Below, piece by piece: positions 45,844-63,134 of a DNA stretch of 64,000 bases (its first letter is position 1; each line of letters begins with the position of its first letter). The notes under the pieces were generated by a model, which saw only the letters and a program-made list of their open reading frames with translations, searched no databases and was not told where the DNA came from. The stretch is from positions 11,756-75,755 of the forward strand of contig NZ_WLCM01000006.1 of the NCBI RefSeq assembly GCF_013317235.1, in the 5' to 3' direction. The position numbers and the translations under genes were made by a program. The stretch comes from Leisingera sp. ANG59 (lineage in GTDB: Bacteria; Pseudomonadota; Alphaproteobacteria; Rhodobacterales; Rhodobacteraceae).

Positions 45844-45844
45844 A

Positions 45845-48731: not shown

Positions 48732-49002
48732 CCGCAGAAAATTCGCATGCTGTGCTAATAGCGGAGCAGCGCTGACACTCCTTCAGAAATTGACTTCTGT
48801 CTTCCAGGTTCCGGGCCGACAATTTGTAAAAGACCGCTCAGGCACTTTTCCGCTGTTACCATAGTGAGCACTGATAGCTGCTTGTACCTTCTATTGAGCC
48901 ACATGCCGAAGGGTATCACCCAAGACCCGCGCCATCATCGACAGAATCCGGCTGCCGCGGGCAATCTGCTTCTCAACGAAACATGCAGATGTGGTGACCT
49001 CC
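48732..49002. other. Spacer between decayed island and aromatic island
   Basis: No convincing gene lies here. The last 100 bases are coding-like in composition on the minus strand (a closing fragment with ARGSRILSMMARVLGD) but no start or family is visible. The catB promoter must lie in or before this stretch. GTATCA, half of the palindromes found at 60633 and 60684, occurs once near 48913. Confidence 0.4.
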
Positions 49003-50151
49003 GTGACAAAGATCGACCAGATCGAGACGATGATCCTCGATATCCCCACGATCCGCGGCCACGTGCTGTCCATGGCGACGATGCGGGTGCAAACGGCTGT
49101 TCTGGTCCGGATCTCGTTCTCTGACGGCTCCGAGGGTATTGGCGAGGGCACCACCATCGGCGGGCTGAGCTATGGCGTTGAAAGCCCTGAGGGCATCCAG
49201 TCTGCGATCGACACCTATATCGCACCGGCGCTGCTGGGCTGTGACGCGGACAACGTGAACGCGGCAATCCAGCGGATCGACAAGGTGGTAAAGGGCAACC
49301 GGATCGCCAAGACGGCCGTGGAAATCGCGCTGTGGGACGGGCTTGGCAAGCGCCTTGGCGTGCCGGTCTCGCAGCTGTTCGGCGGGGCCGTGCATGCCAA
49401 GCTGCCGGTTGCCTGGACCCTGGCTTCCGGCAATTCCGAGACCGATATCGCGGAAGCCCAGGAGATGATCGAGGCGCGCCGCCACAACATCTTCAAGCTG
49501 AAGATCGGCAAACGCACCGTGCGGGAAGACGTGGCCCATGTGGCCCGGATCAAGAAAGCCGTCGGCGATGCCGCCAGCATCCGCGTCGATGTGAACACCG
49601 CATGGTCGCTGCAGGATGCGCGCTGGGGGCTGAAGGGGCTGCAGGAGGCGGGCTGCGAGCTGGTCGAGCAGCCGGTGCCGGCCCGCTGTCGCCGCGCCAT
49701 GGCGGAGCTGACCCGCGGCTACGAGATCGCGGTAATGGCTGACGAGGCGCTGAACGGGCCGGAGGATGCCCTGGCGGTTGCCGATGCCCATGCTGCGGAT
49801 GTTTTCGCCGTCAAGGTGGCGCAGTCCGGCGGGCTGAAGCGGGCCTCGGAAGTGATTGCCATCGCTGAGGCGGCCGGCCGCGGCCTTTATGGCGGCACGA
49901 TGCTGGAAACCGGGCTGGGGACCGCTGCGGCGCTGCAGCTGTTTTCCACCGTCGAGACCCTGCATTGGGGCACCGAGTTCTTTGGCCCGCTGCTGCTGAC
50001 CGGGGAGATCCTGGCCGAGCCGATCACCTATCGCGACTTCTGCGTCGAGATCCCGCGCGGCCCTGGCATCGGCGTGGCGCTGGACCCCGACAAGATCGCA
50101 TTTTTCCGCCGGGACGGCGGCCGGACCATGAGAGCCGCCGCCGGGCAATAG
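49003..50151 (+). CDS. catB: Muconate cycloisomerase, 382 aa
   Basis: Enolase-superfamily muconate lactonising enzyme. With this start the catalytic residues are Lys165/Lys167 (KLKIGK), Asp196, Glu222, Asp247 and Lys271, two less than the classic Lys169, Asp198, Glu224, Asp249, Lys273 of Pseudomonas MLE, so the alignment is essentially gap-free. [15 protein letters not shown] and [12 protein letters not shown] are typical of CatB. It converts cis,cis-muconate to muconolactone. The GTG at 49003 gives the expected N-terminus; a GTG at 48991 is possible, and neither has a clear ribosome binding site. benA follows after 68 bases. Confidence 0.9.
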
Positions 50152-50219
50152 CCCGCGGCACGACATCAAAGCCAGCCTGGCGCCTGACCGGCGCAGGGCT
50201 GTCAGGAGGAGGACGACTG

Positions 50220-51608
50220 ATGTTCACGCAATCCAATCTCGACGCATTCGAGGCCCGTCTCAACGGGGCGATCCAGGATGATCCCGAAAACGGCGTGTTC
50301 CGCTGCCGGAGGGACATCTTCACCGACGAAGAGCTGTTCGAGCTTGAAATCAAGCATATCTTCGAGGGCAACTGGATCTACATGGCGCATGAAAGCCAGA
50401 TCCCGGAGCCGGGAGACTATTTCACCCTGACGATGGGCCGCACACCGGTGGTCATCACCCGCGACAAGGAGGGCGAACTGCACGCGCTGGTCAACGCCTG
50501 TTCGCACCGCGGCGCGCAGCTGTGCCGGTTCAAGCGCCGCAACCAGAAGACCTTTACCTGCCCGTTCCACGGCTGGACCTTCTCGAACACCGGCAAACTT
50601 CTGAAGGTCAAGGACCCGAAGGGCGCAGGCTACCCCGAGCAGTTCAACAAGGACGGCAGCCACGATCTGACCAAGGTTGCCCGCTTCGAGAACTATCGCG
50701 GTTTCCTGTTCGGCTCGCTGAATGCGGATGTGCAGCCGCTGGAGCAGTATCTCGGCGAGGCGCGGAAGATGATCGACATCATGGTCGATCAGGCTGACGA
50801 AGGGCTGGAGGTGCTGCGCGGCTCCTCGACCTATACCTACGACGGCAACTGGAAGCTGCAGGCCGAGAACGGCGCGGATGGCTACCACGTATCGGCTGTC
50901 CATTGGAACTACGTCGCGACCACGGCGCACCGCACTGACGATGGCAAGGAGGACCAGATCAAGGCGACCGATGCCTCGAAATGGGCCAAGCAGCGCGGCG
51001 GCTTCCACGCCTACGGCAACGGCCACATCCTGCTGTGGACGGAATGGGCCGATCCGACCAACCGTCCGAACTATCCGCGGCTGGCGGAATGGACCGAAAA
51101 ATACGGGAAGACCAAGGCGGAATGGATGGTGGGCGTTCTGCGCAACCTCTGCCTGTACCCGAACGTCTTCCTGATGGATCAGTTCAGCAGCCAGATCCGC
51201 GTGTTCCGTCCGGTCAGCGTGAACGAGACAGAGGTGACGATCTATTGCATCGCCCCCAAGGGCGAGAGCCAGGAGGCCCGCAGCCGGCGCATCCGCCAGT
51301 ACGAGGACTTCTTCAACGCCTCCGGCATGGCAACGCCGGATGACACCGAGGAATTCCGGGCCACGCAGCGCGGCTATGCCGGGGCGGCCCATGCCCAGTG
51401 GAACGACCTGACCCGCGGCGCGACCCAATGGATCGAAGGCCCCGACGAGGACGCCAAGGCGCTCGGCATCAACCCTGTTCTCTCGGGTGCCCGCACCGAA
51501 GACGAGGGGCTCTTCGTCATCCAGCACAGCAACTGGTCCGAGCGCATGGGCGAAGCCATCGCCAAGGAACGCGCCACGGCGCCTGAGGCCCGCACTGCGG
51601 CCGAGTGA
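50220..51608 (+). CDS. benA: Benzoate 1,2-dioxygenase large subunit, 462 aa
   Basis: Ring-hydroxylating oxygenase alpha subunit. Rieske ligands are Cys94, His96, Cys114, His117 (CSHRGAQL and CPFHGW). The mononuclear iron site has Asp220, His223 and His228 ([13 protein letters not shown]). Extended stretches such as YIFEGNW-like [17 protein letters not shown] and [19 protein letters not shown] fit BenA-type enzymes of the benzoate/toluate/anthranilate group. It forms cis-dihydrodiol carboxylate with BenB and BenC. AGGAGGAGGAC precedes the ATG at 50220. Confidence 0.93.
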
Positions 51609-51620
51609 GGAGGAGAAGAC

Positions 51621-52166
51621 ATGACCACCGAAACGCTTGAACGCACCACCGGAACCACCGCCGCCGCTACCGGCCCGGCGATGGATTACGAAACCATCCA
51701 GGCCTTTCTCTTTGCCGAGGCCCGTGCGCTGGATGACCGGGACTGGGACACCTGGCTGACGTTCTATCACGCAGACTGCCCGTTCTGGATGCCGGCCTGG
51801 GATGACTACGACACGCTGACGGAAGATCCGCAGAACGAGATGTCGCTGATGTACTACCCCAACAAGCAGGGCATCGAGGACCGCGTGTTCCGCATCAAGA
51901 CCGACCGCTCGTCGGCGACCTCGCTGCCGGAACCGCGCACCTGCCACTACCTGTCGGGGATCGAGGTGCTGAGCCGCGAGGGCACGCAGATCAAGCTGCG
52001 CTTCAACTGGCACACGCTGAGCTTCCGCTACGGCAAGACCGACCAGCACTGGGGCACGTCCTTCTACACGATCGACGCCAGCGGCGCGAGACCGCTGATC
52101 ACCGACAAGAAGGTGGTTCTGAAGAACGATCACATCCACCACGTGATCGACGTCTACCACATCTGA
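51621..52166 (+). CDS. benB: Benzoate 1,2-dioxygenase small subunit, 181 aa
   Basis: Ring-hydroxylating beta subunit with the cystatin-like fold: AFLFAEARALDDRDWDTWLTFYHADCPFWMPAWDDYDTLTEDPQNEMSL region and TCHYLSGIEVL. It has no redox centre and supports the alpha-subunit hexamer. It begins 12 bases after benA with GGAGGAG upstream. Confidence 0.93.
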   Translation: MTTETLERTTGTTAAATGPAMDYETIQAFLFAEARALDDRDWDTWLTFYHADCPFWMPAWDDYDTLTEDPQNEMSLMYYPNKQGIEDRVFRIKTDRSSATSLPEPRTCHYLSGIEVLSREGTQIKLRFNWHTLSFRYGKTDQHWGTSFYTIDASGARPLITDKKVVLKNDHIHHVIDVYHI

Positions 52167-52239
52167 TCCGGGCCATTCCGGGAGCCCAAAGACCTCCGCG
52201 CATCCACGGCAGGGTGCGCGGCCAAGGGAGGAGCATGCC

Positions 52240-53262
52240 ATGACGAGCTACAACGTTGCCCTGAATTTCGAGGATGGCGTCACCCGCGTCATCCAGTGCG
52301 ATGACGACGAGAAGGTGACCGACGCGGCCTTCCGCCAGAAGATCAACCTGCCGATGGATTGCCGCGACGGCGTCTGCGGCACCTGCAAGTGCTTCGTTGA
52401 GAAGGGCGAGTACGATCTGGAATTCTACATGGACGAGTCCATGAGCGACGAGGAGGCGGAACAGGGCTACGCGCTGACCTGCCAGATGACGCCGGAAAGC
52501 GACTGCGTGGTGCGCGTCCCGGTGCCCTCCGCCGCCTGCAAGACCGCGCCGGAGGCCGTCGAGGGCGAGGTGCTGGGGGTGGACACCCTGTCGGAGACCT
52601 CCTTCGGGCTGCGAGTGAAACTGGCCAAACCGGTCGGCTTTCTGCCCGGCCAATACGTGAACGTCACAGTTCCGGGCACCGGCAAGCACCGTTCCTATTC
52701 CTTCTCCTCTGCACCCGGTGCCGGGGAGGCCACCTTCCTGATCCGCAATCTGCCCGGGGGCGTGATGAGCAGCTATCTGGGCGAGCGGGCCAAGGCCGGC
52801 GACAGCGTCACGCTGACCGGGCCGATGGGCGCGTTTTACCTGCGCCCGATCGAGCGCGCGCAGCTGTGGCTGGCCGGCGGCACCGGCCTCGCGCCGTTCC
52901 TGTCGATGCTGGAGCAGGCGGCGGAGCAGGGGACGGATCATCCCATCGTGCTGTACTACGCGGTGACCCGCGCTGCCGATCTGGTGGAGCTGGACCGCGT
53001 GCAGGACCTGGCCGAGAAGATCGGCAATGTCACCGTCATTACCATTCTGGCCGCCGAGGAAGACGCGCATGAGCGCAAGGGCTTTGTCACCGATCATCTC
53101 ACTGCCGGCGATCTGAACGGCGGCGATTGCGATGTGTATCTCTGCGGCCCGCCGCCGATGGTCGATGCGGTGCGGGGTCACTTCGGCAAGCTGGGGGTCG
53201 AGCCTGCGAATTTCTACTTTGAGAAGTTCAACCCGACCGAAGCAGAGGCGGAAGCCGCATGA
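52240..53262 (+). CDS. benC: Benzoate 1,2-dioxygenase electron-transfer component, 340 aa
   Basis: An N-terminal plant-type 2Fe-2S ferredoxin domain with Cys41, Cys46, Cys49 and Cys81 (CRDGVCGTCK) is fused to an FAD domain (HRSYSFSSAPG) and an NAD domain (LAGGTGLAPFLSML, YLCGPPPMVDAV). It moves electrons from NADH to the BenA Rieske centre. Length matches BenC. The stop overlaps the benD start. Confidence 0.93.
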   Translation: MTSYNVALNFEDGVTRVIQCDDDEKVTDAAFRQKINLPMDCRDGVCGTCKCFVEKGEYDLEFYMDESMSDEEAEQGYALTCQMTPESDCVVRVPVPSAACKTAPEAVEGEVLGVDTLSETSFGLRVKLAKPVGFLPGQYVNVTVPGTGKHRSYSFSSAPGAGEATFLIRNLPGGVMSSYLGERAKAGDSVTLTGPMGAFYLRPIERAQLWLAGGTGLAPFLSMLEQAAEQGTDHPIVLYYAVTRAADLVELDRVQDLAEKIGNVTVITILAAEEDAHERKGFVTDHLTAGDLNGGDCDVYLCGPPPMVDAVRGHFGKLGVEPANFYFEKFNPTEAEAEAA

Positions 53263-54038
53263 GCCGCCGGTTTGAGGACAAGGTGATGGTTGTGACCGGC
53301 GCGGCCCAAGGCATCGGCCGCCGGGTTGCCGAACGGGCAGCGGCAGAGGGCGCCCGGGTGCTGATCGTGGACCGGTCCCCCGCCCGCGATGAGGCGGCGG
53401 AGGCGATCCGCAGCGCGGGCGGCGCGGCGCAGGCGATCCCGGTTGACCTGGAAACCTGGGAGGGCTGCGCGGAGGCGATGCAGGCGGCCGTGGACCTCTG
53501 GGGCCGGATCGACATTCTGGTCAACAATGTCGGCGGTACGATCTGGGCCAAGCCCTTTGAGCATTACGAGCCCGGGCAGATCGACGCCGAGGTGCGCCGG
53601 TCGCTGTTCCCGACGCTGTACTGCTGCCGCGCCGCGATTGAGCATATGCTGCCGCAGGGCTCGGGCGTGATCGTCAACGTGTCGTCCATCGCCACGCGGG
53701 GGCTGAACCGGGTGCCTTACGCGGCGGCCAAGGGCGGGGTGAATGCGATCACGGCGAGCCTGGCCTGGGAAGTGGCCGAGCGCGGCATCCGCGTCGTCGC
53801 CGCCGCCCCCGGCGGCACCGAGGCGCCGCCGCGCATCGTGCCGCGCAACCCCAATGCCGAGGAAGAACAGCGCGAGGACTGGTACAAGACCATCGTCGAT
53901 CAGACCATCCAGTCGTCGCTGATGAAACGCTACGGAACGCTCGATGAACAGGCCGGCCCGATCCTGTTCCTGGCGTCGGAGGACGCATCCTACATCACCG
54001 GCGTCACGGTGCCGGTGGGGGGCGGAGATCTCGGCTAG
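53259..54038 (+). CDS. benD: Benzoate dihydrodiol dehydrogenase, 259 aa
   Basis: Short-chain dehydrogenase with cofactor motif TGAAQGIG (13-20), the NNVGG segment at 89-93, and catalytic Ser142/143, Tyr154 and Lys158 (YAAAKGG). It oxidises the cis-diol carboxylate and releases CO2 to give catechol. ATGA overlap with benC shows tight coupling. Confidence 0.92.
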   Translation: MSRRFEDKVMVVTGAAQGIGRRVAERAAAEGARVLIVDRSPARDEAAEAIRSAGGAAQAIPVDLETWEGCAEAMQAAVDLWGRIDILVNNVGGTIWAKPFEHYEPGQIDAEVRRSLFPTLYCCRAAIEHMLPQGSGVIVNVSSIATRGLNRVPYAAAKGGVNAITASLAWEVAERGIRVVAAAPGGTEAPPRIVPRNPNAEEEQREDWYKTIVDQTIQSSLMKRYGTLDEQAGPILFLASEDASYITGVTVPVGGGDLG

Positions 54039-54094
54039 CGCCGAGCCGGGCAGGTCCTGAGGAGGGGCCTCAAAACCACTAGGAGGAACTCACA

Positions 54095-55270
54095 ATGAAA
54101 CGCGCAATCCTGGCGGCCCTTGGGCTCGCCACCAGCCTCGCTGTGCCTGCAGCTGCCGAGGAGAACATCAAGGTCGGCCTGCTGCTGCCGTTTTCGGGCG
54201 TCTATGCCGCGCTTGGCAATGACATCGAGGCGGGGTTCAGCGTCGCCCTGGAACAGTTCGGCAGCGAAGCCGGTACCGGCTTCGACATCGTCCGCGAGGA
54301 CACCGAAGTGAAGCCGCCGGTGGCGCTTGGCAAGGCCAAGAAGCTGATCCTGCAGGACAAGGTGGACGTGATGGCGGGCGTCGTCAGCTCGGGTGTTCTG
54401 GGGGCCGTGCGCGACATGGTGCATGGCGCCGGCGTGCCGCTGATAGTGGCCAATGCGGGCAATGATGAAGCCACCGGCACCAGCTGCTCGCCCTTTATCA
54501 CCCGGATGTCCTTTTCCAACGGTCAGGTGAACCGCCCGATGGGGCAATGGATGCATGATCAGGGCATCCGCAAGGTCTATACGCTGGCGCCGGACTATGC
54601 GGCGGGCCGCCAGATGATCGGGGGCTTTGTCGAGACCTTCACCGCCGCGGGCGGGGAGATCGCCGGGCAGGATTTCACGCCGTTTCAGAAAACCCAGGAT
54701 TTCGGCCCCTACCTGGCGCAGGCCAAGGCCAGCGGCGCCGATGCGGTCTATGTGTTCTATGCCGGCGGCGAGGCGATTTCCTTCGTCAAACAATACGACA
54801 GTTTCGGGCTGAAGGCGGATCTGCCGCTCTACGGATCCGGCTTCCTGACCTCGCCGCTCTATGTCAACGCCGAAGGCCCGGCGGCCGAGGGCGTGATCAC
54901 CGCGCTGCATTACGTGCCGACGCTGGACAATGCGGCCAATGCTGCCTTTGTCGCCGACTTCCAGGCCAGGACCGGGCGCCTGCCGTCGGAATTCGCCGTG
55001 CATGGCTATGACGCGGCCCGCGCCTTGGTCGAGGCGGCAAAAACCGGCGCTCGCGACCGCGCATCGCTGGCCGAGGCCCTGCGCCAGGTCAGCTTTGACG
55101 GGCCGCGCGGCAAGCTGTCGATCGATCCGGCCACCAACAACATCGTCCAGCCGGTCTATGTCTACGAGACCGTGGCGGGCGAAAACGGGCTGACCCAGAA
55201 GGTGCTTGCCGAACTGCCCGCCGAGGCCGACCCGGCCAACGGCTGCAAGATGGCCCCCGTCTCCAACTGA
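54095..55270 (+). CDS. Liv-type ABC transporter substrate-binding protein, 391 aa
   Basis: A signal peptide (residues 1-21, AAA-EE cut) leads into a type-1 periplasmic binding fold: IKVGLLLPFSGVYAALGND, DTEVKPPVALGKAKKLILQDKVDVMAGVVSS, and AKASGADAVYVFYAGGEAISFVKQY. It belongs to the branched-chain amino acid/aromatic-acid group. Location between benD and the permeases strongly suggests that benzoate or a related aromatic acid is the ligand; that is inference. AGGAGG lies upstream of the ATG. Confidence 0.9.
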   Translation: MKRAILAALGLATSLAVPAAAEENIKVGLLLPFSGVYAALGNDIEAGFSVALEQFGSEAGTGFDIVREDTEVKPPVALGKAKKLILQDKVDVMAGVVSSGVLGAVRDMVHGAGVPLIVANAGNDEATGTSCSPFITRMSFSNGQVNRPMGQWMHDQGIRKVYTLAPDYAAGRQMIGGFVETFTAAGGEIAGQDFTPFQKTQDFGPYLAQAKASGADAVYVFYAGGEAISFVKQYDSFGLKADLPLYGSGFLTSPLYVNAEGPAAEGVITALHYVPTLDNAANAAFVADFQARTGRLPSEFAVHGYDAARALVEAAKTGARDRASLAEALRQVSFDGPRGKLSIDPATNNIVQPVYVYETVAGENGLTQKVLAELPAEADPANGCKMAPVSN

Positions 55271-55326
55271 CACTGCAACCCGGCCGTCCCCGTGCGGCCG
55301 GGCCCACTCTCCGAGGAGGGCCTCTC

Positions 55327-56196
55327 ATGGCACATGATCTTGGTTTCTGGACGCTTCAGGCGCTGAATGCGCTGCAACTGTCCATGCTGCTTTTTCTGCT
55401 TTCTATTGGTTTGACGGTCATCTTCGGGCTGATGCATTTCGTCAATCTTGCGCATGGATCGCTCTACGCGCTGGGCGCCTACTTTGCCGCCTCGCTGGCT
55501 GCCATCGGCGGCTACTGGATGGGGTTCTTTCTGGCGCCCGTGGCCGTGGCCGGGGTGGGCGTTCTGCTCTATTCCAGGCTCATCAAGCGGATGCGCAAGT
55601 CCGGTCCGATGGCGCAGGTTCTTGTGACCTTCGGGCTGATCTTCGTGCTGCTCGATCTGACACGGATCTTCTGGAGCGATCTGGCGCTGGCCATCGACGT
55701 GCCCGCGCTGCTGTCCGGCCGTGTGGAATTGCTGGGCATCGAGTATCCGGCCTACCGGCTGTTCATCATCGTTCTCGGGCTGGCGATCTTTGCCGCGCTG
55801 GCGTTTGTGCTGGGCCGCACCCAGATCGGGGCGATGATCCGGGCCGGGGTCGACAATGATGCCATGGCGTCCTGTCTCGGGATCAACGTCGAGCGGCTGT
55901 TCTTCATCGTCTTCTGTGTCGGCTGCGCGCTGGCGGGGCTTGCCGGGGTTGTCGCAGCGCCGCTTCTCAGCGTCACGCCGGACATGGGGCTGCAGATCCT
56001 GATCCCGACGCTGATCGTGATCGTCATCGGCGGCCTCGGCTCGCTCAAAGGCGCGATTGCCGGGTCGCTGATCTATGGCTTCGTTCAGACCTTCGGTGCG
56101 GTGCTGGCACCGCAGCTTGCCTCTGTCCTCATCTATGCCCTGCTGGCGGCGGTCCTTGTGATCAAGCCCGTGGGCCTGTTTCCCGCGAAAGGATAA
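55327..56196 (+). CDS. Liv-type ABC permease (LivH-like), 289 aa
   Basis: LivH-type permease with about eight membrane helices, IGLTVIFGLMHFVNLAHGSLYALGAYFAA at the start and GGLGSLKGAIAGSLIYGF near the end. It pairs with the LivM-like protein to form the channel. Five transporter genes run without interruption from 54095 to 58632. Confidence 0.92.
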   Translation: MAHDLGFWTLQALNALQLSMLLFLLSIGLTVIFGLMHFVNLAHGSLYALGAYFAASLAAIGGYWMGFFLAPVAVAGVGVLLYSRLIKRMRKSGPMAQVLVTFGLIFVLLDLTRIFWSDLALAIDVPALLSGRVELLGIEYPAYRLFIIVLGLAIFAALAFVLGRTQIGAMIRAGVDNDAMASCLGINVERLFFIVFCVGCALAGLAGVVAAPLLSVTPDMGLQILIPTLIVIVIGGLGSLKGAIAGSLIYGFVQTFGAVLAPQLASVLIYALLAAVLVIKPVGLFPAKG

Positions 56197-56200
56197 GCCG

Positions 56201-57205
56201 ATGTTTCGTCACAACGCGCTTCGCTGCACGGTTCTGGTGCTGCTGGCCGCAGCTGCCCTGTTCCAGGCCCTGACCGCCGGGTATTTCGGGCTGGAAATCC
56301 TGACCGAAATTCTGATCCTCGCCATTCTTGTGCTGGCGCTCGATATAGCTGCGGGCTTTGGCGGGATGGTGTCGCTGTGCCACGGCGCATTGATGGGCGT
56401 TGGCGCATATGCCTACGCCATCCTGTCGGCCAAGGCGGGGCTTGCGCCGCCCGTGGCCATGGCGGCTGCCATCGTGCTGACCGGTTCCGCCGCCTGGATC
56501 ATCGGCGCAATCTGCTCGCGCAGCCACGGCATCTATTTCATCATGGCGACGCTCGCCTTCGGCCAGATGGCCTATTCCTACGTCTTCGAAGCACCGGTCT
56601 TCGGCGGAGACGATGGGCTAGGTGGTATTTCCCGGCTGGATCTGAGCTTCATCGGCGTTGACCTGAATGACAGCCGCAGCTTTGCGTTGTTCTGCCTCGC
56701 CACGCTTGGTGCCGTCTATGGCGCGTCGGTGCTGATCCTGCGGTCCGGCCTGGGCCGGTCGCTGGCCGGCGTGATGCACAACGAGCAGCGGATGCGGGCG
56801 CTTGGCCTGACGGTCTGGCGCGTCAAGGCGGATGTGTTCGGGCTGTCGGGCCTGATCGCGGGTCTCGCCGGGGCGCTGGCGGCGCAGCACATCATGTATA
56901 TCTCGCCCGGTCTGCTCAGCTGGACGGTGTCCGGCGAGGCGCTGGTGGTTGTCATCCTTGGCGGGCTGGGAACTCTGGTTGGCCCGCTGGTGGGTGCTGC
57001 TGCCTTTGTGCTGCTGAAGCATGAGCTCAGCGCGCTGACCCCCCATTGGCACCTTGTCGTCGGTGTTATCCTGATCGCCGTGGTGATGAGCCGCGCCAAC
57101 GGGATCTTCGGCTGGATCGAGGCCCGCTGGGACGGGCGGGCCGAGCGCCGGGCGGTAAAGGCCGCGCGCAAGCAGAAGACCAAGGAGGTGCTGAGCGATG
57201 CTTGA
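56201..57205 (+). CDS. Liv-type ABC permease (LivM-like), 334 aa
   Basis: LivM-type permease: EILILAILVLALDIAAGFGGMVSLCHGALMGVGAYAYAIL and a late VVVILGGLGTLVGPLVGAAAFVLL. About nine to ten helices, with a charged cytoplasmic C-terminus. It starts four bases after the LivH-like gene and overlaps the LivG-like gene by eight bases. Confidence 0.92.
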   Translation: MFRHNALRCTVLVLLAAAALFQALTAGYFGLEILTEILILAILVLALDIAAGFGGMVSLCHGALMGVGAYAYAILSAKAGLAPPVAMAAAIVLTGSAAWIIGAICSRSHGIYFIMATLAFGQMAYSYVFEAPVFGGDDGLGGISRLDLSFIGVDLNDSRSFALFCLATLGAVYGASVLILRSGLGRSLAGVMHNEQRMRALGLTVWRVKADVFGLSGLIAGLAGALAAQHIMYISPGLLSWTVSGEALVVVILGGLGTLVGPLVGAAAFVLLKHELSALTPHWHLVVGVILIAVVMSRANGIFGWIEARWDGRAERRAVKAARKQKTKEVLSDA

Positions 57206-57941
57206 GACACGCAATCTGGACAAGAGCTTTGGCGCCGTGCACGTCACCCGCAACGTCTCGCTGAAACTGGAGCGCGGAGAGCGCCGCGTGATCCTGGGGC
57301 CCAATGGCGCAGGCAAGACGACGCTGTTCAACCAACTGGTGGGTGAACTCACACCCGACAACGGATCGGTTCATCTGGCGGGCGAGGATGTGACCGCCCT
57401 GCCGGTTGCGAAACGCGCCCGCCGCGGCCTGTCGCGCAGCTACCAGAAGAATACGCTGTTCGACGGGCTGACGGTTGAGGAAAATCTTGGGCTTGCCGCT
57501 GCCGTGCATACCGGCAACGCGACGCAGCTTTGGTCGGACAGCCTGGCAAAGCCCGACGTTCGCGAGATCGTCGAGGAGGTGGCGGAACAGGTCAACCTGA
57601 TGCCGTTCATTCACGCCAAAGTATCTGAGATTAGCTACGGCGTGCGCCGCCAGCTCGAAGTTGGCGTCGCGCTCGCCACAAGGCCGCTTGTACTGCTGAT
57701 GGACGAACCCACTAGCGGTGTCGGGCCAGAGATGTCGAAGGGGTTTCACGACTTGCTGAACAATCTGCCGCGTGACCTGACAATGCTCATCATCGAGCAC
57801 GACATGGACCTCGCCTTCGACGTGGCGGACACGATCACTGTTCTCAACTACGGCGAAGTTGTCTTTGACGGCTTACCGGAGGAGGCCCGCGGGTCAAGCC
57901 TGCTAAAGGAAATCTATTTGGGGAGCTGGGAAGATGCTTGA
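57198..57941 (+). CDS. Liv-type ABC ATPase (LivG-like), 247 aa
   Basis: ABC ATPase with Walker A LGPNGAGKTTLF, Walker B LVLLMDEPTSG and the short signature ISYGVRRQLEVGVAL, the LivG-type variant of LSGGQ. It overlaps both neighbours by eight bases, so the importer is translated as one coupled block. Confidence 0.92.
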   Translation: MLETRNLDKSFGAVHVTRNVSLKLERGERRVILGPNGAGKTTLFNQLVGELTPDNGSVHLAGEDVTALPVAKRARRGLSRSYQKNTLFDGLTVEENLGLAAAVHTGNATQLWSDSLAKPDVREIVEEVAEQVNLMPFIHAKVSEISYGVRRQLEVGVALATRPLVLLMDEPTSGVGPEMSKGFHDLLNNLPRDLTMLIIEHDMDLAFDVADTITVLNYGEVVFDGLPEEARGSSLLKEIYLGSWEDA

Positions 57942-58632
57942 ACTGAGGGCCATCGAATCCGGTTATGGCGAAACGCAAGTTCTCTATGGCCTTTCGCTGG
58001 AAGCGCAAAAGGGCAGGGTGCTGGCCATCCTGGGCCGCAATGGCGCAGGAAAATCCACAACGCTGAAAACCATCATGGGGTTCCTTCCGATCAAGTCCGG
58101 CGCGATCGCCTTCGAGGGTAAGCCGATCGCGAGGCAACCATTCGACATCGCCAAGAGTGGTATCGCTTATGTTCCTGAAACGCGTGACATCTTTGCGTCT
58201 TTGACAGTGCGCGAAAACCTGGAGATAGCGGCTAAGCGATTTGGCGGAACCAAGACCGAATGGACGATGGAAAGGGTTCTGGATCTCTTTCCCCGTCTTG
58301 GGGAGCGGATGGACAACGGCGGCACCCAACTGTCAGGCGGCGAGCAGCAAATGCTGGCGATTGCACGCGGTTTGCTGATGAATCCCCGCCTCCTGATCCT
58401 CGATGAACCGACCGAGGGCCTGGCGCCGATCATTGTGAAACTGATCCACGACAAGCTCCAGGACCTGAAGGCAGCCGGGCTTTCGATGATCATCGTGGAG
58501 CAAAATTTTGGTTTTGCAACCTCGCTTGCCGATGACGTGGTGGTGGTCGGCAAAGGCCAGGTCGTCTGGACTGGCAGTGCAGAAGAAATCAAGGCAGACG
58601 AGGACGCGCAGCATACCTGGCTTGGTGTGTAA
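57934..58632 (+). CDS. Liv-type ABC ATPase (LivF-like), 232 aa
   Basis: Second ATPase of the importer: Walker A GRNGAGKSTTLKTIMG, canonical signature LSGGEQQMLAIARGL and Walker B LLILDEPTEGLAP, followed by IIVEQNF, typical of LivF. The last gene of the catB-ben-transport unit, it converges on the LysR gene 29 bases further right, with no obvious terminator in the gap. Confidence 0.92.
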   Translation: MLELRAIESGYGETQVLYGLSLEAQKGRVLAILGRNGAGKSTTLKTIMGFLPIKSGAIAFEGKPIARQPFDIAKSGIAYVPETRDIFASLTVRENLEIAAKRFGGTKTEWTMERVLDLFPRLGERMDNGGTQLSGGEQQMLAIARGLLMNPRLLILDEPTEGLAPIIVKLIHDKLQDLKAAGLSMIIVEQNFGFATSLADDVVVVGKGQVVWTGSAEEIKADEDAQHTWLGV

Positions 58633-58661
58633 TTGGGCCGCTTTGTACACCGGCCGTCCGA

Positions 58662-59552
58662 CTAGAAAACCTTGCGGGCCACCTTTTGCGCGATGTTGAC
58701 GAAGTTCTTCACATGCAGGCCTTGCTCGTCCAGCCGGTAGTTGACAGACAGTTCGGTGCGCGCGAACTCGGGTTCGATCCTGAGGAATTTCATACCTTTC
58801 CGCGGGGCGTTTGCAACTGACTCCGGCACGATGCAAACGCCCTCGCCGACGGCAACCAAGCCGAGCGCGGTTTGCAGATCCATGCACCAGATGCGTAGCG
58901 GCGCTTCGAAACCGGCTTCTTCGATAGCTTTCAGAACCATGTCCGCATAGCTCGGGCGGGGCTTCTCGGGGTAAAGGATCAGATGGTGCGTCTTCAGGCG
59001 CTCAAGCTTTGCGACTGAGCGTGTCCCCGTGTCCACAATATCGGGTAATGCCAGGATTAGCCGTTCTTCTACCAAGTGTTTCGAGAGGAACTCTGGATCC
59101 TTAAGCGTTGGGCGGGCGAAAACCACGTCGAGTTCACGCGATACCAAGGCCCTATGCAGATCGGCATTGTTCATGGGGATAAGGCTAAGGTTCACTTCCG
59201 GGTAATTTGCCCGGTATGACCGAATGATGTTCGGAAGAATGCCAAAGGTTGCAGATCCAACGAAGCCGATGCGCAGACGCCCCTCGGCCCCCTGGCCCAA
59301 ACGGCGCACTTCCAGTTGAGTATCTTCAATCTGAGCCAGGATGGATTTCCCGCGTGCGAGCAGCCGCTCCCCTGCCTGGGTCATCGTGATCGCGCTGCGG
59401 CCGCGGTTGAACAGGACTGCGCCCAGCTCTTCCTCGAGCTGCTTGATCTGGCGGCTGAGCGGCGGCTGCGCCATGTCGAGACGCTCTGCCGCCCGTCCGA
59501 AATGCAACTCTTCTGCCACCGCAATGAAATAGGACAGCTGTTTGAAGTTCAT
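58662..59552 (-). CDS. LysR-family regulator of the aromatic island (CatR/BenM-like), 296 aa
   Basis: An N-terminal LysR helix-turn-helix (MNFKQLSYFIAVAEELHFGRAAERLDMAQPPLSRQIKQLEEELG) with the 'AQPPLSRQI' form typical of the CatR/BenM/ClcR group that respond to muconate or benzoate. The effector domain runs to the C-terminus. It lies downstream of catA in the same orientation, past a terminator, so it may have its own promoter. Paired palindromes at 60630-60697 are candidate sites for it. Confidence 0.88.
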   Translation of the reverse strand: MNFKQLSYFIAVAEELHFGRAAERLDMAQPPLSRQIKQLEEELGAVLFNRGRSAITMTQAGERLLARGKSILAQIEDTQLEVRRLGQGAEGRLRIGFVGSATFGILPNIIRSYRANYPEVNLSLIPMNNADLHRALVSRELDVVFARPTLKDPEFLSKHLVEERLILALPDIVDTGTRSVAKLERLKTHHLILYPEKPRPSYADMVLKAIEEAGFEAPLRIWCMDLQTALGLVAVGEGVCIVPESVANAPRKGMKFLRIEPEFARTELSVNYRLDEQGLHVKNFVNIAQKVARKVF

Positions 59553-59598
59553 TTTCCGGTACTCCCCCACGTTTTACGTTAGGAGATCCTGGCAGGTG

Positions 59599-59625
59599 AA
59601 AAAAGGCCCCCGAATATCGGAGGCC
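59599..59625 (-). terminator. Intrinsic terminator of catA
   Basis: GGCCCCCGA (59605-59613) and TCGGAGGCC (59617-59625) form a stem of nine pairs (one G-T) with a 3-base loop; on the minus strand six T follow (59604 to 59599). It lies 25 bases after the catA stop. Confidence 0.8.
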
Positions 59626-59649
59626 AGTCTGGTGGGAGGTATCGGGGTT

Positions 59650-60525
59650 TCACTCGGCGGCGACGGACTGCGCAGCGGCGCCTTCCTTGAGCACGAAGTC
59701 GAACTCGAAGTGCAGGTCCGTGCCCAGTTCCTTGGCCGCGGGCTTGAACTTGCCGATCAGGCTTTCCTTGACGGCGAAGACGCTGTCGTTCTCCAGCCAT
59801 TTGCTGTCGGCGTCGTAGATCTGGCTGATCAGCGGGCGGTAGCCGTCCTTGGAAATAATGAAGTGCACGTGCCCCGGGCGGTTCGGGTGGTGGCCCATGA
59901 AACGCAGCAGCTCGCCTGCGGTTTCATCATCGGGGATCGGGTAGGGGACGGGGCGGACCGCGACAAAGGCGTAGTGGCCGTTCTCGTCGGTCTCGAAGCG
60001 GCCGCGCAGGTTGTATTCGGGCTGGTCCGGGTCGAGGTTTTCATAGACGCCGTTCGGGGCGTCTTCCCAGACGTCGATCGTCACACCGGCGATGCCGTTG
60101 CCGTTTTCGTCCTTGATATAACCCTCGAAATAAGCCGTTTCCTCGTTGTCGAAATGCTTCTGGATGGTCGACGCCCCCTTGGGCAGGACCGGCGGGTTTT
60201 CGCGGTAAAACGGGCCAAGAACGGTCGACTCGCTCTCGTTGCCTTCGACCGGGTTGGTCATCATGTCGACCAGGACCTCGATGCCCAGGATGTCCGCCAG
60301 CAGGATGAACTCCTGGCGGTTGTCGTCGCACAGCTTGCCAGCGCGGGCGAGATAATCGCAGGCGGCCAGGAACTCGTGATGCTGCAGTTTCACGTCCTTG
60401 ATGAAGGCATGCATGTGCTTGATGATGCCGGTCGCGATCTCGCGCTCGCGGTCCGTGATGGTGCCATGCTGGCCAAGGCTGCTGATCACGACGTCCGTAA
60501 TGTTGTCTTGGTTGACGATGCCCAT
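59650..60525 (-). CDS. catA: Intradiol ring-cleavage dioxygenase, catechol 1,2-dioxygenase role, 291 aa
   Basis: An N-terminal helical dimerisation domain (1-90) is followed by the intradiol beta-sandwich: TVLGPFYREN, DVWEDAPNGVY (ligand Tyr161), VPYPIPDD (ligand Tyr195) and HPNRPGHVHF (ligands His219 and His221). These bind Fe(III). Context (ben genes, catB) implies catechol to cis,cis-muconate. The YPIPDD form and DSVFAVKESL ending resemble the hydroxyquinol/chlorocatechol subgroup more than classic CatA, so substrate range may be broader. ATG 60525 has AGGAGAAAG upstream. Confidence 0.88.
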   Translation of the reverse strand: MGIVNQDNITDVVISSLGQHGTITDREREIATGIIKHMHAFIKDVKLQHHEFLAACDYLARAGKLCDDNRQEFILLADILGIEVLVDMMTNPVEGNESESTVLGPFYRENPPVLPKGASTIQKHFDNEETAYFEGYIKDENGNGIAGVTIDVWEDAPNGVYENLDPDQPEYNLRGRFETDENGHYAFVAVRPVPYPIPDDETAGELLRFMGHHPNRPGHVHFIISKDGYRPLISQIYDADSKWLENDSVFAVKESLIGKFKPAAKELGTDLHFEFDFVLKEGAAAQSVAAE

Positions 60526-60629
60526 GGGTTCTTTCTCCTCCTGGCAGGCTGGGTCGGTTGCAGGACGCTCCACCGTCCCTCACTCGCAGCCGAGCTTTGC
60601 CAATACGGCCGGTTATCCCAATGCCTGCG

Positions 60630-60649
60630 GCGGTATCAGGTGATACCGC
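60630..60649. promoter_or_regulatory. Perfect 20-bp palindrome in catA/SCP2 divergent spacer, site 1
   Basis: GCGGTATCAGGTGATACCGC is a perfect palindrome containing GTAT-N6-ATAC (60633-60646). It lies between the divergent catA and SCP2-like genes and probably binds the LysR regulator. Confidence 0.65.
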
Positions 60650-60683
60650 GGATCGCCGGACGCGCCTCCGGCGCATGGCCCGC

Positions 60684-60697
60684 GAGTATTGCCCGAT
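60684..60697. promoter_or_regulatory. Second GTAT-N6-ATAC site, site 2
   Basis: GTATTGCCCGATAC repeats the GTAT-N6-ATAC geometry of site 1, centre to centre 51 bases away (about five helical turns), the pattern of paired regulator sites that bind a tetramer. Confidence 0.55.
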
Positions 60698-60772
60698 ACC
60701 CGCGCTGGCATGGCCGCAGCGCATCCCGCTGTGGCAACACTTCCCCAGCTTAGGAGATTGCGGGAGGTGCAG

Positions 60773-61153
60773 GTGATCGAAACTTTCAAGCATATTCAGA
60801 CCAGCCTTGAGGCGGCGCCGTACTTGCTGCGCCTTGGCCGTCTGTTTTCCGAAACGGTGCTGATCGAGATCGGCGGCAGCGAGTATTACCTGTCGTTCGA
60901 CAAGGGGCACATCGTGTCCGTCACCGAAGGCCCGAGCCGCAAGACGCCTTGGCGGTTCGCCCTGCGCACAGATGCCGAAGCACTGGAAAAGTTCTGGCAG
61001 GCCCGTCCCGAGCCGGGGTTCCATGACATTTTCGGGCTGGTGAAGGCAGGCCGCGGCCGGATCGACGGCGACATCCTGAGCCTCGTCAAGAACCTGCGTT
61101 TCTTCAAGGAAGTGCTGACACTGCCCCGCGCGAAAGAGGAGCTGGCCGCATGA
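60773..61153 (+). CDS. SCP2-like protein, 126 aa
   Basis: The fold matches SCP2-type sterol/lipid-carrier domains: SETVLIEIGGSEYYLSFDKGHIVSVTEG, WRFALRTDAEALEKFW and AGRGRIDGDILSLVKNLRFFKEVL. No catalytic residues are known for the family; members bind hydrophobic small molecules. The GTG at 60773 has GGGAGG upstream. It is the first gene of a four-gene unit divergent from catA, with a 4-base overlap to the hydrolase. A role in binding a pathway intermediate is inference. Confidence 0.7.
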   Translation: MIETFKHIQTSLEAAPYLLRLGRLFSETVLIEIGGSEYYLSFDKGHIVSVTEGPSRKTPWRFALRTDAEALEKFWQARPEPGFHDIFGLVKAGRGRIDGDILSLVKNLRFFKEVLTLPRAKEELAA

Positions 61154-62007
61154 GTATCGAACCGATTACCGGCCGCTATGTCACGGTCACCGTGGGCGGC
61201 ACGCCCCGCCGGATCTATTTCGAGGAAGCAGGGCAGGGCCGTCCGGTCATCTGCCTGCACACCGCCGGGGCCGACACCCGCCAGTGGCGGCACCTGATGA
61301 ACGACGCAGAGATCACCGCCTCGAACCGGCTGATCGCCTTCGACATGCCCTGGCATGGAAAGTCGCTGCCGCCCGAAGGCTTTGAAACGCAGGAATACCT
61401 GCTGACCACCGAAGCCTATATCGAAACCGTTCTGGCGGTCATCGACGGGCTGGGGCTGGTCCGCCCGGTGCTGGCGGGCTGTTCCATGGGCGGGCGCATC
61501 GCGCTGCAGCTTGCCGCCCTGCATCCGGAAAAGTTCAGCGGCTTCATTGCCATCGAAGCCTCGGATTTCCAGCCCGCCTGGTATGACATCGATTGGTTCC
61601 ACCGCCCGGACGCCCATGGCGGCGAAATGGGGGCGGCGCTGGTTTCGGCCAATATCTCGCCATTCGCGCCGGATGCCGAACGCTGGAACACGCTTTGGAT
61701 GTTCATGCAGAGCGGCCCTGGCGTGTTCCGCGGCGATCTGAGCTTTTACACCAAGGACGACAGCCTCATCCCGCGCCTGGCCAGGATCGACACTGGCAAG
61801 ACCCCGGTTCACATCATCGTCGGCGCTTATGACCTGACCTGCACGCCGGAGGATGCGGAGCGGACCGCCAGGGCGATCCCCGGCGCAACGCTGGCCGTGA
61901 TGGATGAGCTGGGGCATTTCCCGATGAGCGAACACCCGGAGGGGTTCCGTCCCTTCTTTGTAGAAGCGCTTGGGAAAATGCCGGAACCGGCCGCCAAGGC
62001 GGCCTGA
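61150..62007 (+). CDS. Alpha/beta hydrolase, candidate 3-oxoadipate enol-lactonase, 285 aa
   Basis: Alpha/beta hydrolase with nucleophile Ser112 in AGCSMGGRIALQLA, an Asp in HIIVGAYDLTCTPEDAE and the catalytic His in LGHFPMSEHPE; FDMPWHGKS and CLHTAGADTRQW are the usual core segments. By fold and location it is the best candidate for the enol-lactonase (PcaD) step, although the sequence is not a textbook PcaD and other lactone or C-C hydrolase roles are possible. Overlaps the SCP2-like gene by four bases. Confidence 0.8.
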   Translation: MSIEPITGRYVTVTVGGTPRRIYFEEAGQGRPVICLHTAGADTRQWRHLMNDAEITASNRLIAFDMPWHGKSLPPEGFETQEYLLTTEAYIETVLAVIDGLGLVRPVLAGCSMGGRIALQLAALHPEKFSGFIAIEASDFQPAWYDIDWFHRPDAHGGEMGAALVSANISPFAPDAERWNTLWMFMQSGPGVFRGDLSFYTKDDSLIPRLARIDTGKTPVHIIVGAYDLTCTPEDAERTARAIPGATLAVMDELGHFPMSEHPEGFRPFFVEALGKMPEPAAKAA

Positions 62008-62035
62008 CACCCGAAATCGCACGGGAGGAGGAACC

Positions 62036-62188
62036 ATGTGCAAGAACGCCGACAATCCCTGTCCGGGGTGCAAGAAGCACAAGAAGCCAGAGGCTGCCTG
62101 GATGTTCTTCACCGAAGAAGAACGCGCTGCCGTCGAGAGTATGCGGCAGGCAGGCAAAGCTTCCGCACCGGCCGAGGCTCGCTCCTGA
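62036..62188 (+). CDS. Small Cys-motif protein, 50 aa
   Basis: MCKNADNPCPGCKKHKKPEA contains Cys2, Cys9 and Cys12, a small metal-binding-like arrangement, followed by a helical FFTEEERAAVESMRQAG. GGGAGGAGGAACC upstream of the ATG is a very strong ribosome binding site, which supports expression. It lies between the hydrolase and BKACE genes. No family recognised. Confidence 0.6.
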   Translation: MCKNADNPCPGCKKHKKPEAAWMFFTEEERAAVESMRQAGKASAPAEARS

Positions 62189-62246
62189 GCGGATACAAAC
62201 CAGGCGCGCCGCACGCGCCGCAACGCGTCAAAACCGGAACATATCA

Positions 62247-63134
62247 ATGACAACCCCCTGCATCATCTGCGTGGCGATCACCGGCAGCCTGCCGACCAAA
62301 GCCAACAACCCGGCTGTGCCGATCAGCGTATCGGAACAGGTGGAATCGACCCAGGAAGCCTTTGAAGCTGGCGCCGCCATCGTTCATGCCCATGTGCGCA
62401 ACGAGGATGAGACGCCCTCGTCGGATCCGGAGAAATTCGCGGCTCTGAAGGAAGGTATCGAGAAGCACTGCCCGGGCATGATCATCCAGTTCTCGACCGG
62501 CGGGCGGTCTGGCGCGGGCAGGACGCGCGGCGGGATGCTGCCCTTGCGGCCCGACATGGCCTCGCTTTCGGTCGGGTCGAACAATTTCCCAACCCGTGTC
62601 TACGAGAACCCGCCCGATCTGGTGGCTTGGCTGGCCTCGGAAATGTCAGCCCACGACGTCAAGCCCGAGATCGAAGCGTTCGATCTGAGTCACATCCTGA
62701 AGGCCAAGCAGATGGCCGATGAAGGCCTGCTGCCCGGAACCCCCTACATCCAATTCGTAATGGGTGTGAAGAACGCCATGCCGGTCGATCGGGATGTGTT
62801 CGACTACTACATCCGCACCGTTCACCGGCTGTTCGGCGAAGATGCGCCGTGGTGCGCGGCCGGCATCGGGGCCAATCAGCTTACGCTGAACGAATGGGCG
62901 ATATCTGCGGGCGGGCACGCGCGGACCGGGCTTGAGGACAATGTCCGCCTCGACCGGGATACGCTGGCCCCGTCAAACGCCGCGCTGGTGCGCCGGACCG
63001 CGGAAATTTGCGCAAAGAACAACCGCCCCGTCGCAACCTGGCAAGAGGCGCGGCGCATTCTCGGGCTGCGCTTACCCAAAGTCGGCATGACCCGCGGCAA
63101 AACCGAAAAGTCCGAAGCTGCGACTATTGTCTGA
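62247..63134 (+). CDS. BKACE family beta-keto acid cleavage enzyme (DUF849), 295 aa
   Basis: BKACE TIM barrel with zinc ligands His47 and His49 (VHAHVRNEDETPSSDP), QFSTGGRSGAGRTRGGMLPLRPDMASLSVGSNNF, PEIEAFDLSHI, QFVMGVKNAMP and RTGLEDNVRL (third ligand Glu). The family condenses a beta-keto acid with acetyl-CoA to give acetoacetate plus a new acyl-CoA. In this operon beta-ketoadipate is the natural candidate: it would give succinyl-CoA and acetoacetate, bypassing CoA transferase and thiolase. The fold call is firm, the substrate is inferred. Confidence 0.88.
   Translation: MTTPCIICVAITGSLPTKANNPAVPISVSEQVESTQEAFEAGAAIVHAHVRNEDETPSSDPEKFAALKEGIEKHCPGMIIQFSTGGRSGAGRTRGGMLPLRPDMASLSVGSNNFPTRVYENPPDLVAWLASEMSAHDVKPEIEAFDLSHILKAKQMADEGLLPGTPYIQFVMGVKNAMPVDRDVFDYYIRTVHRLFGEDAPWCAAGIGANQLTLNEWAISAGGHARTGLEDNVRLDRDTLAPSNAALVRRTAEICAKNNRPVATWQEARRILGLRLPKVGMTRGKTEKSEAATIV

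What the first reader, a model, noticed from the sequence alone, without database searches (positions are those of the whole stretch)
49003..63134. Catechol branch with a BKACE enzyme in place of the usual CoA-transferase/thiolase end
Seen: catB, benABCD, catA, a lactonase-like alpha/beta hydrolase and a DUF849/BKACE enzyme in one island, with no catC, pcaIJ or pcaF. Known: BKACE enzymes cleave beta-keto acids with acetyl-CoA to acetoacetate and an acyl-CoA. Inference: beta-ketoadipate could be cleaved directly to succinyl-CoA and acetoacetate, a shortened beta-ketoadipate pathway.
Basis: partly seen in the sequence, partly recalled or inferred. Interest (0 to 1): 0.72.

Follow-up and report, generated by a model that had tools for sequence, protein, structure and literature searches.

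The report
Catechol pathway with two swapped modules
A Roseobacter-like bacterium seems to break down benzoate through catechol with two stretches of the textbook pathway exchanged for unrelated enzymes: one exchange (the last step) is already described elsewhere, while the other, a small unnamed protein plus a hydrolase standing where the missing muconolactone isomerase should be, looks new and can be tested directly.

Summary
The island is real. Its BKACE scores 492 bits (cut-off 350) on NCBI's "3-oxoadipate:acetyl-CoA acetyltransferase" model, so the proposed beta-ketoadipate cleavage is very likely. It is not new: print has it for Methylobacterium and, as a prediction, for a Cupriavidus catechol branch. 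Nor is it shorter: the acetoacetate still needs a CoA-transferase and a thiolase, and 12 of 18 related islands carry such a CoA-transferase gene directly behind the BKACE.

The better finding lies upstream. No catC was found in the genome. In 199 same-family genomes each of 18 catB loci has either catC (4) or a small protein next to an alpha/beta hydrolase (14); none has both or neither. The small-protein loci form two catB lineages, and both ends (BKACE, PcaIJF) occur with both middles. Sulfitobacter D7 carries the same island, grows on benzoate, and its authors found every catechol-branch gene except CatC. The small protein models as an SCP2 fold and stood before a related hydrolase in 37 of 37 distant loci examined. 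I propose that the pair turns muconolactone into beta-ketoadipate; which partner isomerises is unknown. No enzyme was assayed.

The parts
48991..50151 (+). catB, muconate cycloisomerase
   Evidence: TIGR02534 511 bits, cut-off 335; PDB best = muconate cycloisomerases
50220..51608 (+). benA, benzoate 1,2-dioxygenase large subunit
   Evidence: TIGR03229 789.5 bits, cut-off 781
51621..52166 (+). benB
   Evidence: TIGR03232 253 bits, cut-off 226
52240..53262 (+). benC
   Evidence: NF040810 503 bits, cut-off 430
53259..54038 (+). benD
   Evidence: NF040811 433.5 bits, cut-off 380
54095..58632 (+). branched-chain-amino-acid-type ABC transporter, five genes (54095-55270, 55327-56196, 56201-57205, 57198-57941, 57934-58632); possible benzoate importer
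   Evidence: ORFs, permease and ATPase genes named by eye and by their counterparts; first gene Peripla_BP_6; same place and order annotated in Phaeobacter, Limimaricola, Roseivivax and Sulfitobacter D7 islands; substrate inferred
58662..59570 (-). LysR regulator, related to CatM/BenM and AlsR models
   Evidence: 152 bits to CatM and to BenM, 237.5 to AlsR, all below cut-off
59650..60573 (-). intradiol ring-cleavage dioxygenase taken to act as CatA, hydroxyquinol-dioxygenase clade
   Evidence: PF00775/PF04444; PDB best hydroxyquinol enzymes
60773..61153 (+). 126-residue protein (GTG start), predicted SCP2 fold; proposed partner in the CatC/CatD replacement
   Evidence: no Pfam or NCBIfam match at E <= 0.001 and no PDB sequence match better than E 0.7; AlphaFold model pLDDT 69.4, Foldseek top hits SCP2 proteins; mutually exclusive with catC at catB loci
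61150..62007 (+). alpha/beta hydrolase, 4-base overlap with the small gene; proposed to make beta-ketoadipate from muconolactone with it
   Evidence: PF00561; PcaD model 73 bits, cut-off 256; S112, D228, H256 and the GCSMGG motif invariant in 18 sequences
62247..63134 (+). BKACE, 3-oxoadipate:acetyl-CoA cleavage enzyme
   Evidence: PF05853; NF053568 492 bits, cut-off 350

Best explanation
The island is a benzoate-to-central-metabolism route by the catechol branch with two modules replaced. BenABCD makes catechol; a hydroxyquinol-clade intradiol dioxygenase makes cis,cis-muconate; CatB makes muconolactone. (1) An SCP2-fold protein and an alpha/beta hydrolase, encoded by overlapping genes, replace CatC (and probably CatD/PcaD) and turn muconolactone into beta-ketoadipate. 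(2) BKACE cleaves beta-ketoadipate with acetyl-CoA into succinyl-CoA and acetoacetate. ScoAB (elsewhere in this genome, directly behind BKACE in many relatives) then moves CoA from succinyl-CoA to acetoacetate and a thiolase makes two acetyl-CoA, so the net yield equals the classical pathway. Shown here: gene content, no catC found, locus-level exclusivity, the exchange of ends and middles, family membership of BKACE. Inferred: every reaction, and above all which partner moves the double bond. I rate step 2 about 0.85 and step 1 about 0.65.
For: BKACE over the 3-oxoadipate equivalog cut-off, as are the copy behind pcaG in the same genome and three copies in relatives' loci. A ScoA gene follows BKACE directly in 12 of 18 small-protein islands (4 of the 12 cut by the contig end; L015 and L016 are near copies) and is 78-84% identical to this genome's C16 ScoA but 44-46% to a PcaI. 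No MIase domain found in the genome. In 199 same-family genomes, 18 catB loci over cut-off: 4 adjoin catC, 14 have the small gene within 11 kb, 0 both, 0 neither; the hydrolase adjoins the small gene in all 14. Close small gene in 14 of 16 catB genomes and 2 of 183 others, Fisher p 1.3e-17, not corrected for kinship. CatB tree: small-protein loci form two lineages, AU test against one clade p = 0.0125, with a long-branch warning. Ends and middles recombine: CatC+PcaIJF (L138), CatC+BKACE (L185, L186), small pair+BKACE (window, L171, L173-L176, L178, L182), small pair+PcaIJF (L132, L133). Sulfitobacter D7 carries this island, grows on benzoate as sole carbon source, and its authors found every catechol-branch gene except CatC (PMC9873259, passages).
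Against: No activity was measured here, and I found no assay of this pair in the listings and passages that I saw. The SCP2 fold is known to me as a carrier or accessory fold, not as an isomerase, and the model is of moderate confidence (pLDDT 69). The pair also occurs without catechol genes: in all 37 distant loci examined no catC and no catA or catB orthologue was found (2 of the 37, L223 and L224, have pcaHG a few kb away), and in close form in G005 (L170) and on a Xanthobacter plasmid (L117, 67% identity). So its chemistry is wider than muconolactone. A PcaD over cut-off exists elsewhere in this genome and could do the lactone hydrolysis; the D7 paper names a PcaD too, and I did not establish which gene that is. 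Two of 80 BKACE loci carry PcaIJF too (L064, L070), so BKACE is not always a replacement. In 6 of 13 small-pair regions of the family neither end was found within the stretch. Kinship inflates the exclusivity count. This genome also has a CoA-transferase pair and a thiolase over the pcaF cut-off that might do the classical end.
Confidence: 0.65

Rival explanations
1. The hydrolase alone isomerises and hydrolyses muconolactone; the SCP2-like protein is only a structural, folding or substrate-delivery subunit.
For: The small gene preceded a hydrolase of this family in 37 of 37 distant loci of varied context, as expected of an obligate subunit; several SCP2 domains in the hit list are parts of larger enzymes (MFE-2, alkylsulfatases); catalytic triad invariant.
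Against: Charged and aromatic residues of the small protein are strongly conserved among 18 close sequences and H84, D85 in 88-91% of 78, which may be more than a mere chaperone needs.
Confidence: 0.4
2. The small protein is the muconolactone isomerase, an analogue of CatC, and the hydrolase is a divergent enol-lactonase. In distant loci the pair would do the same with simpler butenolides, giving succinic semialdehyde.
For: The CatC step is the one function without another candidate, since a PcaD exists elsewhere. In 4 of 8 distant plasmid loci the pair is followed directly by a succinate-semialdehyde or aldehyde dehydrogenase gene (L121, L124, L125, L126).
Against: No isomerase is known to me with the SCP2 fold. 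Of the 29 distant genome loci only L243 showed a match to the aldehyde dehydrogenases used as queries, and there behind a transporter gene.
Confidence: 0.25
3. The classical end operates: the C16 CoA-transferase pair and the C54 thiolase convert beta-ketoadipate, and BKACE serves another beta-keto acid.
For: Pair over TIGR02429/TIGR02428 cut-offs, thiolase over the pcaF cut-off.
Against: C16 ScoA is 42% identical to a PcaI but 78-84% to the ScoA that directly follows BKACE in relatives; the thiolase sits beside genes reading as paaABC; BKACE adjoins pcaG or the cat genes and passes the 3-oxoadipate equivalog.
Confidence: 0.1
4. The true substrate is hydroxyquinol or a substituted catechol rather than catechol, because the dioxygenase is of the hydroxyquinol clade.
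For: PDB matches 208 bits (6-chlorohydroxyquinol enzyme) against 117 (catechol).
Against: benABCD over benzoate cut-offs and a cycloisomerase over its cut-off, neither needed for hydroxyquinol; Sulfitobacter D7 with the same island grows on benzoate.
Confidence: 0.08

Closest known systems
Beta-ketoadipate pathway, catechol branch (catBCA, catD/pcaD, pcaIJF)
   Same: benABCD, catB and an intradiol dioxygenase; same intermediates expected up to muconolactone and again at beta-ketoadipate
   Different: no CatC found; hydrolase below the PcaD cut-off; BKACE in place of PcaIJF; dioxygenase of the hydroxyquinol clade
BKACE / 3-oxoadipate:acetyl-CoA acetyltransferase (NF053568, DUF849/COG3246)
   Same: full-length member over the cut-off
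   Different: sits behind a pathway that also lacks CatC; otherwise ordinary
Methylobacterium pca cluster with kce (PMC8963497, PMC12379598; passages)
   Same: BKACE instead of pcaIJF
   Different: protocatechuate branch, with pcaB and pcaL present
R. eutropha (Cupriavidus) H16 catBCD + COG3246 in the CatM/BenM regulon (PMC6449761; passage)
   Same: BKACE proposed for beta-ketoadipate in the catechol branch
   Different: has catC and catD
Sulfitobacter D7 plasmid benzoate island (PMC9873259, passages; sequence)
   Same: same gene order, same small-protein/hydrolase pair, CatC not found
   Different: a 3-oxoacid CoA-transferase gene lies at the edge of the stretch; no BKACE annotated in it
SCP2-fold proteins (2cx7, 1wfr, UbiJ 6h6o)
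   Same: predicted fold of the small protein
   Different: 9-16% identity, no Pfam match, unlike role

Membership tests
3-oxoadipate:acetyl-CoA acetyltransferase (BKACE) | score over the NF053568 equivalog cut-off | tested here: met
   492 bits, cut-off 350, residues 2-275
3-oxoadipate:acetyl-CoA acetyltransferase (BKACE) | cleaves beta-ketoadipate with acetyl-CoA | not testable with these tools
   no assay
Classical catechol branch | CatB | tested here: met
   511 bits, cut-off 335
Classical catechol branch | CatA over a catechol 1,2-dioxygenase equivalog | tested here: not met
   151 bits, cut-off 392
Classical catechol branch | CatC, muconolactone isomerase domain PF02426 | tested here: not met
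   no match in 5.33 Mb, completeness 100; small protein has no match
Classical catechol branch | enol-lactonase CatD/PcaD in the island | tested here: not met
   73 bits, cut-off 256; a PcaD at 336 bits lies on another contig
Classical catechol branch | PcaIJ | tested here: inconclusive
   a pair over TIGR02429/TIGR02428, which lump PcaIJ with ScoAB; nearer to the ScoA behind BKACE
Classical catechol branch | PcaF | tested here: met
   691 bits, cut-off 597, but on C54 beside genes reading as paaABC
SCP2 fold (small protein) | structural match to solved SCP2 proteins | tested here: inconclusive
   six matches E <= 0.001, all SCP2-type proteins, prob 1.00, but TM (query) 0.49-0.62 and model pLDDT 69
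SCP2 fold (small protein) | Pfam sequence match | tested here: not met
   no SCP2 model among the families listed for 18 members at E <= 10 (HMMER's filters drop most weak matches)

The most novel reading that the evidence does not exclude
An SCP2-fold protein and its alpha/beta hydrolase form a two-component lactone-processing enzyme family, found here from proteobacteria to Gram-positives and a haloarchaeon, whose close branch replaces CatC and CatD in the catechol branch of many Rhodobacterales and some Rhizobiales; this fills the CatC gap reported for Sulfitobacter D7.
Probability: 0.55. Interest if true: 0.72.

Novelty: new variant of a known kind. Interest (0 to 1): 0.56.

Why it matters
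The beta-ketoadipate pathway is a textbook case and a workhorse of lignin and muconate engineering. Some marine bacteria that live on algal benzoate seem to run it without the isomerase that the pathway maps require. The comparison names two genes for that step, predicts that they can stand in for catC, and shows that middle and end of the pathway were exchanged independently. It also gives a first handle on a widespread pair of proteins, one of them unnamed.

Tried and rejected
Small gene as a diverged CatC: no PF02426 match and no other family. BKACE as a shortcut: rejected on stoichiometry and on the ScoA gene behind it in relatives. pcaF on C54 as a hidden classical end for benzoate: neighbours read by eye as paaABC. 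Class-wide repeat of the catC/small-gene test (337 genomes): only this genome had a close small gene and catB was not searched in that sample, so it cannot repeat the exclusivity test; it showed the distant relatives instead. Distant neighbourhoods: no common substrate emerged, so the butenolide idea stays a weak rival. Of 39 non-own places, 26 were fetched; 13 (second copies, near relatives or weak matches) were not. VIA-align was not available. Plasmid replicate: of the 25 catB records listed, the 13 at 64.8% identity or more all appear in the small-gene list and the other 12 do not appear among the 53; for 5 of those 12 a catC was seen, the other 7 were not checked (60 of 142 catC records are listed). 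In one of the 13 (Leisingera thetidis) the two genes lie about 108 kb apart. The genus samples and the loci overlap in part (for example L174 and L014 come from contigs of equal length), so they are not independent.
Full report
What is there. The island runs from catB (48991) to the BKACE (63134), every gene open from start to stop. catB, benA, benB, benC and benD pass curated cut-offs. Between benD and the regulator lie five genes of a branched-chain-amino-acid-type ABC transporter, annotated at the same place in four relatives. The ring-cleavage enzyme passes no catechol equivalog cut-off and is nearest to hydroxyquinol dioxygenases of solved structure. Between it and the BKACE lie two genes: a 126-residue protein starting with GTG at 60773, and an alpha/beta hydrolase whose ATG overlaps its stop by four bases.

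The BKACE end. The protein scores 492 bits against NCBIfam NF053568, 3-oxoadipate:acetyl-CoA acetyltransferase, cut-off 350. The genome holds six DUF849 genes; one lies directly behind pcaC-pcaH-pcaG on another contig (families) and scores 502 bits. Among 80 related BKACE loci (the best 80 of 200 matching stretches), 18 carry the dioxygenase, small gene and hydrolase, 34 carry pcaH or pcaG (one locus has both sets), 29 carry neither within the held stretch, and none showed catC (tblastn at fixed score limits). In 12 of the 18 a ScoA gene begins where the BKACE ends (4 cut by the contig end); it is 78-84% identical to the ScoA on contig C16 of this genome and 44-46% to a PcaI. So acetoacetate is probably activated by succinyl-CoA and split by thiolase. 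Summed, BKACE, ScoAB and thiolase turn beta-ketoadipate and CoA into succinate and acetyl-CoA, exactly as PcaIJ and PcaF do (my bookkeeping). Against a strict replacement, two of the 80 loci (L064, L070) carry PcaIJF as well.

This part is in print. PMC6449761 (passage) places COG3246 with catBCD under CatM/BenM in R. eutropha H16 and suggests beta-ketoadipate cleavage. PMC8963497 and PMC12379598 (passages) describe the same exchange in Methylobacterium pca clusters, and the second reports that a plasmid with pcaHGBL, kce and vanABK enabled growth of M. extorquens on vanillate and protocatechuate. PMC4922564 (passage) summarises the 2014 BKACE study by Bastard and others, which I did not read.

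The missing isomerase. PF02426 has no match in the 5.33 Mb assembly. In 199 genomes of the family (one per genus by the tally; completeness filter 90), catB over cut-off occurs in 16 genomes at 18 loci, PF02426 in 10 genomes, the small protein in 19. By coordinates, 4 catB loci lie within about 60 bases of a PF02426 gene (G117:C2, G020, and two flanking one catC in G151) and the other 14 lie within 11 kb of the small gene. None has both, none neither. G117 has one locus of each kind. Sixteen of the 19 small genes are close (56% identity or more): 14 at catB loci, one beside what reads by eye as a BKACE fragment, without catB (G104, L169), and one in a stretch without cat genes (G005, L170). 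Close small gene: 14 of 16 catB genomes, 2 of 183 others; Fisher p 1.3e-17 without correction for kinship. PF02426 also occurs in 7 genomes without catB (one of them below the cut-off), and G117 has a second copy away from catB, so the domain alone does not mark the catechol branch.

A catB tree of 32 rows (one cut gene and one paralogue dropped; two rows identical) puts the small-gene loci in two separate lineages, with at least two label changes and one clade rejected at p = 0.0125; the program warns of long branches. Six catC-linked CatB are 57-62% identical to the window's, while nine small-gene CatB are only 38-43% identical; two further catC-linked ones (L187) are 37-38%. So the exclusivity is unlikely to be one inherited locus.

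Ends and middles recombine. CatC with PcaIJF: L138. CatC with BKACE: L185 (with PcaD) and L186. Small pair with BKACE: the window and 7 of the 13 fetched family regions L171-L183; the other 6 show neither end within the stretch. Small pair with PcaIJF: L132 and L133. Such exchange is expected if all share beta-ketoadipate as the joint.

A living test exists. Sulfitobacter D7 plasmid p5SUD7 carries the island in the same order, with the pair annotated as hypothetical protein and alpha/beta hydrolase. PMC9873259 (passages) reports growth on benzoate as sole carbon source, expression of the genes of the cluster in algal conditioned media, and that all genes of the catechol branch were found except CatC. 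The paper also names a PcaD, PcaIJ and PcaF; I did not establish which gene its PcaD is. It offers no replacement for CatC in the passages I saw. The listings of searches showed me no other paper on the question; I opened none of those others.

The pair. The close family is strongly conserved. The hydrolase keeps Ser112, Asp228 and His256 in all 18 sequences aligned (of 18 loci I left out L016, whose small protein is identical to that of L015, and added the window). The small protein has no family, but its model (pLDDT 69.4) finds SCP2 proteins in all six PDB matches at E <= 0.001. The hydrolase model is weaker (pLDDT 63) and finds esterases, C-C hydrolases and dehalogenases. Beyond the close branch the small gene directly precedes a hydrolase of this kind on the same strand in 37 of 37 loci examined (26 of 39 places, 3, 8 plasmid loci), including Rhodococcus, Peribacillus and a haloarchaeon. 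The stop of the small gene overlaps ATG or GTG in 57 of 82 loci. Half of the 8 plasmid loci have a succinate-semialdehyde or aldehyde dehydrogenase directly downstream; two of the 29 genome loci have pcaHG a few kb away (L223, L224); the other contexts vary. Close copies without catechol genes also exist (L170, L117).

Judgement. The better finding is a candidate for the reported CatC gap: a two-gene, possibly two-component, route from muconolactone to beta-ketoadipate. It rests on comparison alone and is cheap to test.

Noticed in passing
G000 contig C43, locus L106:8173-11778: The pca cluster of the same genome (pcaC, pcaH, pcaG, then a BKACE over the 3-oxoadipate cut-off, with a divergent LysR gene) shows no pcaIJF either; pcaD (over cut-off) and a pcaB-like gene (315 bits, below its cut-off of 356) sit on contig C54 (L168).
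   Followed up: yes
window 59650-60573: The ring-cleavage enzyme is of the hydroxyquinol-dioxygenase clade; relatives of it accompany the small-gene pair in all 13 family regions L171-L183, while the classical catechol dioxygenase accompanies catC in L135-L138, L185 and L186.
   Followed up: partly
locus L118 (Phaeobacter inhibens P88 plasmid): Two copies of dioxygenase, small gene and hydrolase stand in one island, the second followed by an ABC transporter and a BKACE.
   Followed up: no
locus L169 (G104): Apparently a decaying island: small gene and hydrolase remain, what reads by eye as a BKACE fragment follows, and no catB was found.
   Followed up: partly
loci L223 and L224 (G441, G361): A distant small-gene/hydrolase pair lies a few kb from protocatechuate dioxygenase genes pcaHG (46-51% identity), so the pair may touch the protocatechuate branch too.
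   Followed up: no
window 63747 to beyond the window end (L104:1503-3446): A flavoprotein of the phenol 2-monooxygenase subfamily (978 bits, cut-off 560) on the minus strand next to the island; it may feed another phenol into it.
   Followed up: partly
window 45133-46543: A DUF1638 gene beside a corrinoid (B12-binding) protein resembling methyltransferase partners MtgC/MtbC, below their cut-offs.
   Followed up: no
loci L064 and L070 (Paracoccus): BKACE and PcaIJF stand near each other in one pca region, so some genomes keep both ends.
   Followed up: no
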